NCBI GenBank assembly: GCA_013824245.1
Contig: PNNN01000067.1
Span: forward strand, 1 to 64,000
From: Chlorobiaceae bacterium
GTDB taxonomy: Bacteria; Bacteroidota; Ignavibacteria; UBA10030; SZUA-254
Direction of reading: 5' to 3'
DNA: 64,000 nt
Shown: piece by piece, positions 46,609 to 52,221 of the stretch
How positions within the stretch are numbered: the first letter of the stretch is position 1
How the letters are laid out: each line of letters starts with the position of its first letter
Program-made: the position numbers and the translations under genes
Notes under the pieces: generated by a model
The model's database searches: none
Seen by the model: only the letters and a program-made list of their open reading frames with translations
Told to the model about the DNA's origin: nothing

Positions 46609-47636
46609 AACGAAATTCGGCTCGAATAATATTTCTAATAACTGCCGCTCTGCTGATAACACAATGCGGAAAGAAAGGCGAAAACAAACATTTTCGCTAT
46701 GTTGCCTCAGCGGAATGGTCAACCACATCATATAATGCACTGATCATATCTAAAGATGAGTACGACGAGGTTGTTGGCGCAACATCCGGGTGTGGGGCAG
46801 ACGCCACCACTGAAAGTGTTCGCGCACCCGATTATGCTCTTTTCTTGTCCGATACCGGTGAAACGAAATTAAAACAACTTTTTAAAAATGAACGGATACT
46901 GCCACCACACCAAATTAAGTGGTCTCCGCTTGGCGATAAGTTTATTTTATATGGCGGACGAATGTCGACTCTTTATATTGTCGATACCATTGGTTCATAC
47001 ATCAAAACAGATTCTCTGAAATATGCTTATGACGCAGACTGGTCGCCAGATGGTTCGCAAATCGTCTGCTCGGCTTTGCGCAGTGCACGAGTTTATCCGT
47101 CTCTTAATATCGTCGATGCAACAACGGGTACAACAAATTTGTTGCTCCCCGATTCCGTTCATACCGGTTCGGTATCATGGTCTGCAAACAATCAGCTCGC
47201 GTTTGTATTTTCCCGCGATTCTACAAACGGGATGGCTGTCATCAACGCCAATGGCACCGGTATGATGCTCCTCGACAGTTCTTCATTTTTTAACGCATTG
47301 CGCTGGTCTCCCGATGGATCTACAATTCTTTATGCTAAACATCTCAATTATGATTCAGATGTTTATACGATGAATGTTTTTACCACAACAACCATCCACA
47401 GATTGCATTTTACAGACGATACTCAGATAGCTTCGCTAAGGTATTCACCGAACGGGCAAAAAATAAGTTACTATTTATATGGATCATCGAACACAACATA
47501 CTTGTATGTGATGAATTTATCGGATGGAAGCGCTCAGCAGATCGCTGTACAATCTACCGATGGGAGCTGGTCACCCGACTCTAAGCAGATAGTTTATGTT
47601 TCTTACGATGATATATTTTTCAAAACAGTTGAATGA
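46596..47636 (+). CDS. TolB-like beta-propeller lipoprotein
   Basis: Lipobox LLITQCGKK; repeated DWSPDGSQIV / RWSPDGSTILY / RYSPNGQKISYY. Confidence 0.85.
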   Translation: MEKIKRNSARIIFLITAALLITQCGKKGENKHFRYVASAEWSTTSYNALIISKDEYDEVVGATSGCGADATTESVRAPDYALFLSDTGETKLKQLFKNERILPPHQIKWSPLGDKFILYGGRMSTLYIVDTIGSYIKTDSLKYAYDADWSPDGSQIVCSALRSARVYPSLNIVDATTGTTNLLLPDSVHTGSVSWSANNQLAFVFSRDSTNGMAVINANGTGMMLLDSSSFFNALRWSPDGSTILYAKHLNYDSDVYTMNVFTTTTIHRLHFTDDTQIASLRYSPNGQKISYYLYGSSNTTYLYVMNLSDGSAQQIAVQSTDGSWSPDSKQIVYVSYDDIFFKTVE

Positions 47637-47860
47637 ACATTTTTTTAAAATAAATCAACAATAGCTGATAAGGAAAACGCCCTAAAAGACAGGGGGATTT
47701 GAAATAAGGAGTAATGGATTGCTGGATTATTGGATTGTTGTAAAAGGTGATTTGGAAGTTTTGAGAAACTAAGCTATTTTATGCAGAAATAAAAAAACTA
47801 AAAGATACAAGATTCTTAATTTACTTAAAAAACATTTTATACATAGATTCAAAAATAGCA

Positions 47861-48172
47861 ATGATAAAAAATAAAATTTTTCAAGATAGAATATTTCTCA
47901 ATCTCATTGATGAAAACGGACACACCTTACTGATTAAGAAAATCCTAAAAAGTCCAATAGGACTTGCATCAGATATTATTAACTCTCTTTTTGAAGAAAA
48001 CATAGAATCTCTAAAAAATGATCTAGACAAAATTAAAAAGTTTGTTGCAGGTATAAATAGAGCTGATAGCTTAGCAAATCAATATTCATTGGCAAAATTC
48101 TATTCGCCAATGTTTTCTTTCCATCAGTTTTTTAACAGTTCATTTCGTGCTAGGCAAGGAAAGGTCCTATAA
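47861..48172 (+). pseudogene. N-terminal part of restriction-endonuclease-like gene, cut by in-frame TAA
   Basis: ...FHQFFNSSFRARQGKVL-TAA-EMIRNILENF; same frame as the 48176 ORF with only GAA between stop and next ATG. Confidence 0.6.
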
Positions 48173-48175
48173 GAA

Positions 48176-50353
48176 ATGATACGAAACATATTGGAAAATT
48201 TTGCTGGGTGTGATATAGTCCCAGAAAAAGTTAGAGAAATGCAGAATATATTGGCAGAAGCGTTAGGTGGGAAAGTCCCAAATCTTGATATAGATGTAAT
48301 GGGGTGCAATTCAAAGAAAAAGAAAATTATCACTATTCAACTTCGCTCTCGTGATGACACTGGAGGCACAACAGCAAAAGGGTCTCTTGTCGATATGTTG
48401 CGTGGAATATTGAGGATGAAAGCGAAAAGCTCAAAAGAAATCTTGTATTTGGTAGCTGTTTGGGATGAAAGAGATTCGCAACAAAAGAGTTCAACAATTA
48501 GTAAAATGTATTCTTCTTTAAAAGATTTAATTGATATTGACGAAGACAAATTTCAAAAGGATATCTCTAGTGGCGTCAGTATTGATAATAAGATTACTTT
48601 AAAAATGGCTTACGGCGTCGACGAAATAATGCGGGGAATTTTAGGGTGGAGCGGAAAAAGGGCGGATAAAACCGCGTTGAGTGCAATAAATAATATTACC
48701 AAACTTGTCGAGATTTGGGATGATCTCTGGATATCTTATACGCTTGCAAGTTTAGAGATAGAAGTTAGAGCATTCAAGAATTTATCCAACATTAAATTAC
48801 TAAACAATAGATTCAAACAAACAAATTCTAAATTTGATTTTTCATCGTATAAAAACTTGGTGAAATCAATAGACGATATTACTAATAAAATCGTCCCTAT
48901 TTGGAAAGAAAACAGTATTCCACTAAAATCACCATCAGATCAAATTCACTACATACGAGACATGCTTTTTTTGAAAGCATGTTATGATAAAAACCAAAAT
49001 AAAAAAAAAGTATATGATGTCGAAAAAACCAAGGTAGCAAGAAAAGTAAGGGAGCCTAACAGAAAATATCAGTTAGATATTTTCCCAAACCCAACAGAAA
49101 ATATTAAAGAGACTGAAACAGATGACTCTGAACTTAAACCCCAGTTAGTATCATTCAGGGATTATTTTCCCGAAATAACCGATACCGGATATCTAACGCA
49201 TTCAATCTATTATTATCCAGCAAAATTCATTCCACACGTAGTAAAGTACTGCATTGAAGAATATACTGATAAAGATGATTGGATTATTGATCCATTCGCT
49301 GGTTCTGGAACAGTTGGTTTAGAAGCCTTTATCCACGAAAGAAATGCAGTTCTGTATGATTTGAACTTGCTGCTAAACCATATTATGCCTATCAAAATAT
49401 TTACTAGCACTGAGGAACACTCAAAGTCAGAATTGCATCAGATATTACGAGGCTTTGATAACAATAAGAAGGAATTTCTTCCAACATGGATAAGCATTGA
49501 ATATTGGTATCCAGAAGAAATGTTGCAAGAATTGTGTACCTACTGGGGTTACTTGAAATCCTTGCCTGAAAATATTTATTCAATGGTAATTAAAGCTGCG
49601 CTGGTTAAGGCTAGTAAGCACTTCTCATATGCGGAGCATAGAACACCCAAACTCTTCCGTTCAAAAAGTAAAAAACATTACATCGAAGAATTGTTAAAAC
49701 AAGAATGGAAAACTCAATTAAAAAGAATGATCTATTCTCTTTCCCTGCAATATTATGACAGTGTGTGTCATTTACAGTTTTTGACAAAAGGTCACACAAA
49801 TCAAGTATTGTATTACAGTGGTGTAGATTCAGCATATTTCAATTTGGAAAAAGAAATTCCAATTAATTGTTTGATAACTTCCCCGCCTTATCTACAGGCA
49901 CAAGAATACATTAGAACCGCAAAACTTGAGTTGTATTGGTTGGGACACACGGAAGGAGAAATTAAGGGTATTTCAAAATTAGAAATTCCTTATAGAAAAT
50001 CAGATCAAATATTTGAAACAAAAACTTTGAATAATATAAAATCAAAAATTGAAAGAGTTGATTTGCTCGCAACCGTTGATTCTTATTTTTGTTATACCAT
50101 AAAGGCTTTAGAGCGCGCTATGAGTTACATTAAGAGCGGTGGAAAAAGTTGTATCTTCGTCGGTAATCCAACCGTTGAGGGGAAAGAAGTTGAAACATGG
50201 AGAATTCTCATGGAATATTTTTGTGATCGAGGTTTTGACTTCGAGAAAATATTTGATGACAGAATAAAGTCTCGTCAGTTATTCGGCTCTAGAAATAATA
50301 AAAATCCAGATGGAATGAAGTCAGAATATATGCTTATATTATCAAAAAAATAG
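48176..50353 (+). CDS. DNA methyltransferase with N-terminal restriction-endonuclease-like region
   Basis: MTase motif I WIIDPFAGSGTVGLEA and motif IV LITSPPY; upstream YYYPAKFIPHVV; N-terminal LDIDVMGCNSKKKKIITIQLRSRDDTGGTTAKGSLVD suggestive of a nuclease core. Confidence 0.8.
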   Translation: MIRNILENFAGCDIVPEKVREMQNILAEALGGKVPNLDIDVMGCNSKKKKIITIQLRSRDDTGGTTAKGSLVDMLRGILRMKAKSSKEILYLVAVWDERDSQQKSSTISKMYSSLKDLIDIDEDKFQKDISSGVSIDNKITLKMAYGVDEIMRGILGWSGKRADKTALSAINNITKLVEIWDDLWISYTLASLEIEVRAFKNLSNIKLLNNRFKQTNSKFDFSSYKNLVKSIDDITNKIVPIWKENSIPLKSPSDQIHYIRDMLFLKACYDKNQNKKKVYDVEKTKVARKVREPNRKYQLDIFPNPTENIKETETDDSELKPQLVSFRDYFPEITDTGYLTHSIYYYPAKFIPHVVKYCIEEYTDKDDWIIDPFAGSGTVGLEAFIHERNAVLYDLNLLLNHIMPIKIFTSTEEHSKSELHQILRGFDNNKKEFLPTWISIEYWYPEEMLQELCTYWGYLKSLPENIYSMVIKAALVKASKHFSYAEHRTPKLFRSKSKKHYIEELLKQEWKTQLKRMIYSLSLQYYDSVCHLQFLTKGHTNQVLYYSGVDSAYFNLEKEIPINCLITSPPYLQAQEYIRTAKLELYWLGHTEGEIKGISKLEIPYRKSDQIFETKTLNNIKSKIERVDLLATVDSYFCYTIKALERAMSYIKSGGKSCIFVGNPTVEGKEVETWRILMEYFCDRGFDFEKIFDDRIKSRQLFGSRNNKNPDGMKSEYMLILSKK

Positions 50354-50355
50354 TT

Positions 50356-52221
50356 ATGCCAATATATTTTCGCGATAAATATCTCCCTCCGATCTGGCAA
50401 AAACTCCAACTCGGTGAACGTCTCTCACTTGAAGACGGATTAATCCTCTTCAAGACTAACGACCTTATCTCCCTTGGCAAAATGGCTCATTACGTTCAGC
50501 AACAAAAGAGCGGGGATGCGGTTTACTTCGTACTTAACCAGAAAATTGAGCATACAAACGTTTGCGTTCTCTCGTGCAAATTCTGTGACTTTGCTAAGAA
50601 AAAAGGTGAGCCGGATGCATATGAGATGACGACTGATGAAATTCTTTCAAAGATCACCCCCGAGATAAAAGAAGTTCACATCACCGGCGGTATGCCTCAC
50701 GATTGGCGATGGGAACGTTACATCGATATCGTCAGAAGCATTCATAATAAATTTCCTGATGCCGATGTAAAAGCATACACGGCGGTTGAGATAGATTTCT
50801 TCCATAAAAAATTTAAATTACCAATAGAAGAAATATTGCGCCAGCTACAAGCGGCTGGTCTTCGCACCATGCCCGGCGGCGGCGCAGAAATTTTTACCGA
50901 ACGTGTGCGAAAACTTTTATTTCCGCAAAAGATCGGAGCGAAAGGTTATCTTGAAGTCCATAAAACCGCTCACAAATTGGGAATACCCACAAACTGCACA
51001 ATGCTTTACGGACATATCGAAACGATTGAAGAACGATTGATTCATATGGTAAAACTACGTGAAGCACAGGATGAGACAGGTGGATTCCTTTCGTTTATCC
51101 CTCTTGCCTTTCAACCCGGTGATACCGGAATTAAACCAAAGAATCAATTCACATCTGCGATCGATGACCTCAAGACAATTGCGGTATCGCGCCTAATGCT
51201 TGATAATATCCCGCACATTAAAGCATACTGGGTGATGTTGACTGAAGAAGTGGCATCTGTTGCTCTCAATTTTGGTGCGGATGATATCGACGGTACGGTT
51301 GGACAGGAACGGATCGCGCACGATGCCGGCGCCATCAGTCCAATGAAACTTGCAAAAGATAAAATAATCAAGATGATATCCGAAGCCGGAAAAATCCCCG
51401 TCGAACGAGATGCTTTTTATAATCCGCTCAATGTTTATTCAGAAAATGTAATCGGGAAAATTCCTTATTTGAATTCAGTCCCTTTCTATCACAATTTAGA
51501 AAAGTCCGCCACAGGCGGATTTAAAATTCTTCCGGTTGCTCCACGCAGAATGGGAATGTTAAGCAAGGAAGGACAAATTGATGCCGGACTTTTTTCATTA
51601 ATGGATTATTTTGATCAAGAAGAAAATCTTGAGTTGCTGGATTGGTGTATTGCAACGCGCGATCAGGTGAAAAGTGTTATGCTTTTTTCAAAAGAAGGTT
51701 GGACCGGTTTAAACGGAAAAAAGATTGGAATAACTGATGACACCGCGACTTCAGTTCACCTGTTAAAAGTAATTTTAGAGAAAAAATATAATGTTCGCAC
51801 AGAGTTTGTTCGTCTGCATCCCGGAGTTAACGATTACGCTTCTTTTGATGCTGTTCTGTTGATTGGAGATGATGCATTGAAGTATAACAAAGTCGGATTA
51901 AATGGATTTGAACTCGTATTTGATCTGGCTAAAGAGTGGTATGATTGGCAAAAACTACCGTTTGTTTTCGCTGTATGGGCATGCAAAAATAGTTTAAGTG
52001 ATATTCGAAAAGAAAAATTAAAAGATATGATTAGCGCGGCATTAAATAAATCAGAAGATGAGTACGGCGAAATTGGAAATATGCAAGGTAGACAAATAGG
52101 ATTGAATCTAAGTGAAACAAAAGAATACCTCGAGGGTTTTAACTACCGGCTTGGCGAGCGGGAAAGGGAAACTATGTCAATGTTCCGGAAATTAGTTAAC
52201 GAAATAAATATAAAGGTGTGA
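50356..52221 (+). CDS. mqnE-mqnA: bifunctional aminofutalosine synthase (MqnE) - chorismate dehydratase (MqnA) fusion
   Basis: N-terminal radical SAM CVLSCKFCDFAKKKGEPDAYEMTTDEI; C-terminal MqnA-type IGKIPYLNSVPFYHNL...DAGLFSLMDYF...GLNGKKIGITDDTATSVHLLKVIL. Confidence 0.88.
   Translation: MPIYFRDKYLPPIWQKLQLGERLSLEDGLILFKTNDLISLGKMAHYVQQQKSGDAVYFVLNQKIEHTNVCVLSCKFCDFAKKKGEPDAYEMTTDEILSKITPEIKEVHITGGMPHDWRWERYIDIVRSIHNKFPDADVKAYTAVEIDFFHKKFKLPIEEILRQLQAAGLRTMPGGGAEIFTERVRKLLFPQKIGAKGYLEVHKTAHKLGIPTNCTMLYGHIETIEERLIHMVKLREAQDETGGFLSFIPLAFQPGDTGIKPKNQFTSAIDDLKTIAVSRLMLDNIPHIKAYWVMLTEEVASVALNFGADDIDGTVGQERIAHDAGAISPMKLAKDKIIKMISEAGKIPVERDAFYNPLNVYSENVIGKIPYLNSVPFYHNLEKSATGGFKILPVAPRRMGMLSKEGQIDAGLFSLMDYFDQEENLELLDWCIATRDQVKSVMLFSKEGWTGLNGKKIGITDDTATSVHLLKVILEKKYNVRTEFVRLHPGVNDYASFDAVLLIGDDALKYNKVGLNGFELVFDLAKEWYDWQKLPFVFAVWACKNSLSDIRKEKLKDMISAALNKSEDEYGEIGNMQGRQIGLNLSETKEYLEGFNYRLGERERETMSMFRKLVNEINIKV

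What the first reader, a model, noticed from the sequence alone, without database searches (positions are those of the whole stretch)
47861..50353. One in-frame TAA splits a fused restriction-methyltransferase gene
ORF 47861-48172 and ORF 48176-50353 share a frame: AGG CAA GGA AAG GTC CTA TAA GAA ATG ATA CGA = RQGKVL*EMIRN. The joined product reads as a continuous endonuclease-like domain followed by the MTase (DPFAGSGT, TSPPY). One change (e.g. GAA to TAA) would explain it. Options are disabled nuclease with active MTase, a reversible off-switch, stop read-through, or re-initiation at the ATG 3 nt later.
Basis: partly seen in the sequence, partly recalled or inferred. Interest (0 to 1): 0.7.

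Follow-up and report, generated by a model that had tools for sequence, protein, structure and literature searches.

The report
Restriction-modification gene with disabled nuclease
A horizontally acquired bacterial gene that fuses a DNA-cutting enzyme to its protective DNA methyltransferase carries one recent stop codon exactly at an invariant, probably catalytic residue of the cutting half, so the cell has most likely kept the methylase but lost the scissors: a clear but ordinary case of a restriction system starting to decay.

Summary
In detail: 47861-48172 and 48176-50353 share one frame, broken by a single TAA at 48170-48172. About 34 related loci settle what it is. The joined product aligns end to end (50% over 827 residues) with an intact 830-aa fused REase-MTase. 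Most other relatives are two adjacent genes split about 270 residues further on, never here. The TAA falls on the Glu of an RARQGKxxE motif, invariant in all intact relatives (GAA/GAG in 30 of 30). The REase models as a PD-(D/E)XK nuclease like EcoO109I, with this Glu in the long core helix where AvaII has its metal-binding Glu. The window keeps 40 of 41 invariant REase positions (only the Glu is lost) and 43 of 43 MTase positions. dN/dS against the nearest relative is about 0.09 on both sides of the stop. The stop is therefore very recent, or an assembly error. The cassette is absent from the sister species. No slippage repeat surrounds the stop; the ATG just downstream is an old Met codon. 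Best reading: a recent nonsense mutation disabled the nuclease; the MTase ORF is intact and may be translated by restart. Relatives show the same decay by other lesions. Ordinary; modest interest.

The parts
47861..48169 (+). N-terminal 103 residues of the REase domain (helical part and most of the long core helix), open up to the stop
   Evidence: 65% identical to residues 4-99 of the intact REase of L030; dN/dS 0.085 against L055
48170..48172 (+). In-frame TAA at the codon of the invariant Glu of RARQGKxxE
   Evidence: GAA (21) or GAG (9) in 30 of 30 intact relatives; invariant in 31 aligned REases
48156..48178 (+). Possible restart site: AAGGAAAGG, 11-nt spacer that includes the TAA, ATG at 48176
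   Evidence: Sequence; use as a start is inferred only
48173..48991 (+). Rest of the REase domain: Asp codons 48287-48289 and 48293-48295, Gln codon 48338-48340, Lys codon 48377-48379, all intact
   Evidence: 52% identical to L030; 40 of 41 invariant REase columns kept, only the Glu lost; dN/dS 0.087
48992..49123 (+). Linker between the domains, without an in-frame start codon of its own for the MTase
   Evidence: Last in-frame start codon before the MTase is at 48971; linker resembles that of fused L061
49124..50353 (+). MTase domain: DPFAGSGT 49289-49312, TSPPY 49877-49891, stop TAG 50351-50353
   Evidence: Pfam N6_N4_Mtase 1.9e-14; PADLOC MTase_II 2.4e-25; 43 of 43 invariant MTase columns kept
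47660..50415 (.). Acquired segment: absent from the same-genus genome G001, which has 32 nt here
   Evidence: Alignment with G001 and G006 and GC content 33% against about 41%

Best explanation
This is a horizontally acquired Type II restriction-modification gene of the fused, single-chain (Type IIC-like) form: an N-terminal PD-(D/E)XK nuclease domain, a linker and a C-terminal DNA methyltransferase, probably N4-cytosine. A very recent single-base nonsense mutation turned the codon of the nuclease's invariant helix Glu into TAA. Shown: the stop, its position on the invariant Glu, the intact and conserved MTase frame, the absence of the cassette in the sister species. Strongly inferred: the nuclease is off, because the 103-residue piece lacks all other active-site residues and any restarted product lacks the first 105 residues including this Glu. 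Inferred at about 50-60%: the ribosome restarts at the ATG 4 nt after the stop and makes a 725-residue protein with a working methylase. Losing the nuclease first is the safe direction of decay, because methylation without cutting does no harm.
For: Intact fused relatives, L045 aligned over 827 residues and others. Glu invariant in 31 REases, GAA/GAG codon in 30 of 30. Glu lies in the long helix 72-109 of a confident model, pLDDT 90.5; best fold match EcoO109I, prob 1.00; the related AvaII uses a Glu of the core helix, E123, with D147 and Q161 (PMC7337904). All other invariant positions kept: REase 40 of 41, MTase 43 of 43. dN/dS about 0.09 on both sides of the stop. Cassette absent from G001 and G006. 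Relatives with broken or missing REase and intact MTase: L062, L063, L111.
Against: No reads, so an error in the assembly is not excluded. The equal constraint on both sides of the stop means there is no sign yet of decay, which an error or a tolerated stop would also give. Synonymous changes are near saturation, so the dN/dS values are rough. That the Glu is catalytic rests on analogy with AvaII; the fold match is moderate (best E 1.4e-3). The MTase has no dedicated start, so its expression is not assured.
Confidence: 0.72

Rival explanations
1. The TAA is a base-call or assembly error, or a minority variant in the sequenced population; the gene is an intact fused restriction-modification enzyme.
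For: It is the only lesion in 2.5 kb, constraint is equal on both sides, and every other invariant position is kept. No second genome of the species is held.
Against: The neighbouring genes are intact; a single substitution error in a 76-contig genome of 100% completeness that happens to hit an invariant Glu codon is not likely. Broken copies are common in this family.
Confidence: 0.14
2. Both halves are dead: no restart takes place, the MTase is not made, and the whole gene is a young pseudogene.
For: The fused gene has no separate MTase start. The closest relative, L055, also fused, is broken in both domains by 2 nonsense codons and 3 frameshifts.
Against: MTase frame fully intact with 43 of 43 invariant columns, though this only says the event is young. 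ATG directly after the stop makes a restart easy.
Confidence: 0.08
3. The stop is a switch or is read through: a small amount of full-length enzyme is made, or the state reverts often.
For: Strong constraint on the REase part after the stop would fit continued use.
Against: No homopolymer or short repeat at the stop, unlike phase-variable Helicobacter genes (PMC3936762). TAA is an ordinary stop here, ending 17 of 39 long ORFs in the window. No relative shares the stop. A stop on an invariant residue would need Glu or a stand-in to be inserted.
Confidence: 0.05
4. The gene is naturally two genes with the boundary here, a split enzyme whose pieces reassemble.
For: Two ORFs with a possible restart between them.
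Against: No relative is split here. The cut falls inside a predicted 38-residue helix and removes its invariant Glu.
Confidence: 0.01

Closest known systems
L045, intact fused REase-MTase of an Anaerolineales MAG (830 aa)
   Same: Same domains, order and length; 50% identical over 827 residues
   Different: Frame intact, Glu codon present
L055, fused gene of a Nitrospinae MAG
   Same: Nearest relative by DNA, 74% over the gene; same fused layout
   Different: Sense codon GAA at the window's stop (listing), but 2 other nonsense codons and 3 frameshifts hitting both domains
[quoted passage not shown]
   Same: REase followed by MTase in one chain, derivable from adjacent genes by loss of the stop between them
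   Different: RM.Eco29kI was engineered and from an unrelated R-M system; the window's chain is interrupted
EcoO109I / AvaII REases
   Same: Fold; order Glu on a long helix, Asp, then Gln in place of the acidic residue as in AvaII
   Different: No detectable sequence similarity to any PDB chain; Arg where AvaII has the motif Lys; target unknown; in the window the Glu is a stop
MTases of Sulfolobus viruses STSV1 and STSV2
   Same: 36% identical over the MTase domain, better than any plasmid or other phage match
   Different: No REase half is covered by the match

Membership tests
Type II R-M, fused single chain (Type IIC) | REase and MTase domains in one uninterrupted polypeptide | tested here: not met
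   Interrupted by TAA at 48170 in the window; met in L045, L053, L056, L058, L066, L067. The gene descends from such a form but as sequenced is not one.
Type II R-M, fused single chain (Type IIC) | Cleavage and methylation of the same target | not testable with these tools
   Needs biochemistry or a methylome
PD-(D/E)XK nuclease, EcoO109I/AvaII-like | Fold | tested here: met
   On the intact relative L038: Foldseek EcoO109I prob 1.00, E 1.4e-3, TM 0.37-0.52; moderate
PD-(D/E)XK nuclease, EcoO109I/AvaII-like | Active-site set: helix Glu, Asp, (D/E/Q)xK | tested here: not met
   Relatives have Glu, Asp, Gln-x-Arg and a Lys 11 residues after the Arg, so the Lys position is unsure; in the window the Glu codon is a stop
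CCGG-family REases (NgoMIV, EcoRII, PspGI) | Catalytic Lys followed by the R-(D/E)R recognition motif and a further acidic residue | tested here: not met
   The invariant RSRDD precedes the invariant Lys; EcoRII-C matches 1 of 31 members at E 0.05 only
N4-cytosine / N6-adenine DNA MTase | AdoMet motif (DPFAGSGT) and catalytic (S/D)PPY motif | tested here: met
   Both present; Pfam PF01555 54.6 bits over cut-off 26.7; 43 of 43 invariant columns. TSPPY suggests N4-cytosine (inference)
Phase-variable R-M gene | Slippage repeat or invertible element at the on/off site | tested here: not met
   No homopolymer over 3 nt or short repeat around 48140-48200 (by eye)

The most novel reading that the evidence does not exclude
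A single nonsense change in a fused restriction-modification gene, landing beside a ready-made start codon, converted it in one step into a translated and selected stand-alone methyltransferase that keeps an inert nuclease remnant.
Probability: 0.08. Interest if true: 0.45.

Novelty: new member of a known kind. Interest (0 to 1): 0.25.

Why it matters
It catches a fused restriction-modification gene at the first step of decay, with the lesion exactly on an invariant nuclease residue and the methylase untouched, which is the order of loss expected if the nuclease is the costly half. It also points to a REase family, found in bacteria and archaea in separate and fused forms, that has no model in Pfam, NCBIfam or PADLOC as searched here. 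Otherwise it is an ordinary inactivation event.

Tried and rejected
Family searches with the 103-aa piece and the REase domain gave nothing useful in Pfam, NCBIfam, PADLOC or PDB sequences. A first collection scan with the window protein alone found no relative; the alignment-based scan found 34 loci. Viral contigs gave none. Plasmids and phages matched only the MTase half. Whether the window's fusion is the same event as the Chloroflexota fusion is unresolved: the trees leave the window in an open fork although the linkers resemble each other. An MTase match on contig C5 with internal stops proved to be an intact 381-aa ORF. Membership in the CCGG family was considered because its Glu motif looks alike, and rejected on motif order. 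A split enzyme and a slippage switch were considered and rejected.

Full report
Observation. The frame from 47861 to 50353 holds 831 codons with exactly one internal stop, TAA at 48170-48172, followed by GAA and ATG at 48176.

Is the joined product real? Yes. A search with the part after the stop found two relatives in a sample of the class, one of them (G198) 52% identical. Its locus L030 carries a 374-aa REase ORF and an adjacent 429-aa MTase ORF. The REase of L030 reads FRARQGKVLEEMIKNILENY where the window reads FRARQGKVL*EMIRNILENF. A phylum sample and a scan of one genome per species (34 loci) extended the set to Bacteroidota, Chlorobiota, Cyanobacteriota, Poribacteria, Chloroflexota, Omnitrophota and several archaea.

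Gene layout. Most relatives have REase and MTase as two neighbouring genes, usually R then M, sometimes M then R. Seven have both in one ORF: L045 (830 aa), L053, L056, L058, L066, L067, and L061, whose contig begins inside the REase. The joined window product aligns with L045 over 827 residues at 50% identity. The linker of the window resembles that of L061. In L039, R and M are in the same frame with a single stop between them, which shows how little is needed to fuse them. No relative is split where the window is.

Where the stop falls. In 31 aligned REases the Glu of RARQGKxxE is invariant; in the 30 whose codon was read it is GAA (21) or GAG (9). The ATG after the stop corresponds to a Met that many relatives also have two residues after the Glu, so it is an old codon. 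AlphaFold on the intact relative L038 gives a confident model (pLDDT 90.5) in which this Glu (residue 100) lies in a long helix, 72-109. Foldseek's best PDB matches are EcoO109I chains (prob 1.00, best E 1.4e-3, TM 0.37-0.52). In the related AvaII, a Glu of the core helix (E123) holds the second metal together with D147, and a Gln (Q161) replaces the usual acidic residue of the (D/E)XK motif (PMC7337904). The family here has the same order: Glu, Asp, then an invariant Gln-x-Arg, plus an invariant Lys 11 residues after that Arg. That the Glu is catalytic is inferred from this parallel, not shown.

State of the rest. Forty of 41 invariant REase columns are kept in the window; the only one lost is the Glu. 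All 43 invariant MTase columns are kept. Against the nearest relative by DNA, L055 (74% over the gene), dN/dS is 0.085 before the stop and 0.087 after it within the REase; synonymous changes are near saturation, so these are rough. The end branch of the window is not lengthened in the REase tree (0.34, against 0.46 in the MTase tree). With 437 of 7461 possible single changes making a stop, 0.02 neutral substitutions per site would already give about 3 nonsense codons. The stop is thus recent, or it is an error in the sequence; the two cannot be told apart without reads.

History of the locus. In the same-genus genome G001, aligned DNA on the two sides is separated by 32 nt where the window has about 2757 nt; G006, of another genus, also lacks the cassette. 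The cassette has 33% GC against about 41% around it. It was gained after the split from these relatives. L055 has a sense codon at the position of the window's stop, so the stop is the derived state.

Decay in relatives. L062 (Chlorobiales) has two frameshifts in the REase and an intact MTase. L063 (Anaerolineaceae) has a broken REase frame and an intact MTase ORF. L055 (Nitrospinae), itself fused, has 2 nonsense codons and 3 frameshifts over both domains. L111 (Chloroflexota) has an MTase with no REase found beside it. REase loss is thus recurrent here, by different lesions. A general survey finds stronger purifying selection on MTases than on REases, but also that solitary MTases seldom arise by decay within a species (PMC4176335), so the present state may be transient.

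Mechanism and expression. Shown: the nonsense codon, the open and conserved MTase frame, and no in-frame start codon between 48971 and the MTase domain. Inferred: nuclease off; MTase made, if at all, from the ATG at 48176 by restart right after the stop. A purine-rich AAGGAAAGG lies 11 nt before that ATG, a long spacing; about a third of the long ORFs in the window have any SD-like site in reach (13 of 39). Without restart both halves are silent and the MTase should decay as in L055. A slippage switch is unlikely because there is no repeat at the stop, unlike the phase-variable Helicobacter Type IIG genes (PMC3936762). The idea that fused R-M chains arise from adjacent genes is established (PMC3039593).

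Verdict. It is a clean, early-stage inactivation of the nuclease half of a fused restriction-modification gene, an ordinary kind of event. The REase family lacks a model in the libraries searched, which is worth a note for annotators.

Noticed in passing
47633-47665 and 50356-50415: The cassette sits at the junction of a lipoprotein gene and mqnE. The left edge keeps a short relic resembling the mqnE start of G001, while the present mqnE begins with a different 5' end (MPIYFRDKYLPPIW against MIISFKDNQLTAIW in G001), so the insertion seems to have brought or replaced the first 60 nt of mqnE.
   Followed up: partly
G002:C179:16810-17489 and G004:C16:128402-128506: Partial extra copies of the mqnE 5' part lie just upstream of intact mqnE in two other genera, which suggests that this junction is a recurrent insertion site.
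   Followed up: no
L055:2992-5467: A fused relative in a Nitrospinae MAG is broken in both domains: 2 nonsense codons and 3 frameshifts.
   Followed up: yes
L062:2989-4122: Chlorobiales relative with two frameshifts in the REase behind an intact MTase gene.
   Followed up: partly
L111:1327-2733: A Chloroflexota genome has the MTase of this family next to an unrelated ORF and no REase: a solitary MTase.
   Followed up: partly
L048:4407-6713: In one Poribacteria locus the MTase lies at the C-terminal end of a 769-aa open frame, about 290 nt after the REase gene; the first 365 residues were not identified.
   Followed up: no
L038-L071: The REase family (conserved QLRSRDDTGGTTAK and RARQGKxxE) occurs in bacteria and archaea but matches no Pfam or PADLOC model, nor any PDB sequence, as searched here; the window's pieces match no NCBIfam REase model.
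   Followed up: partly
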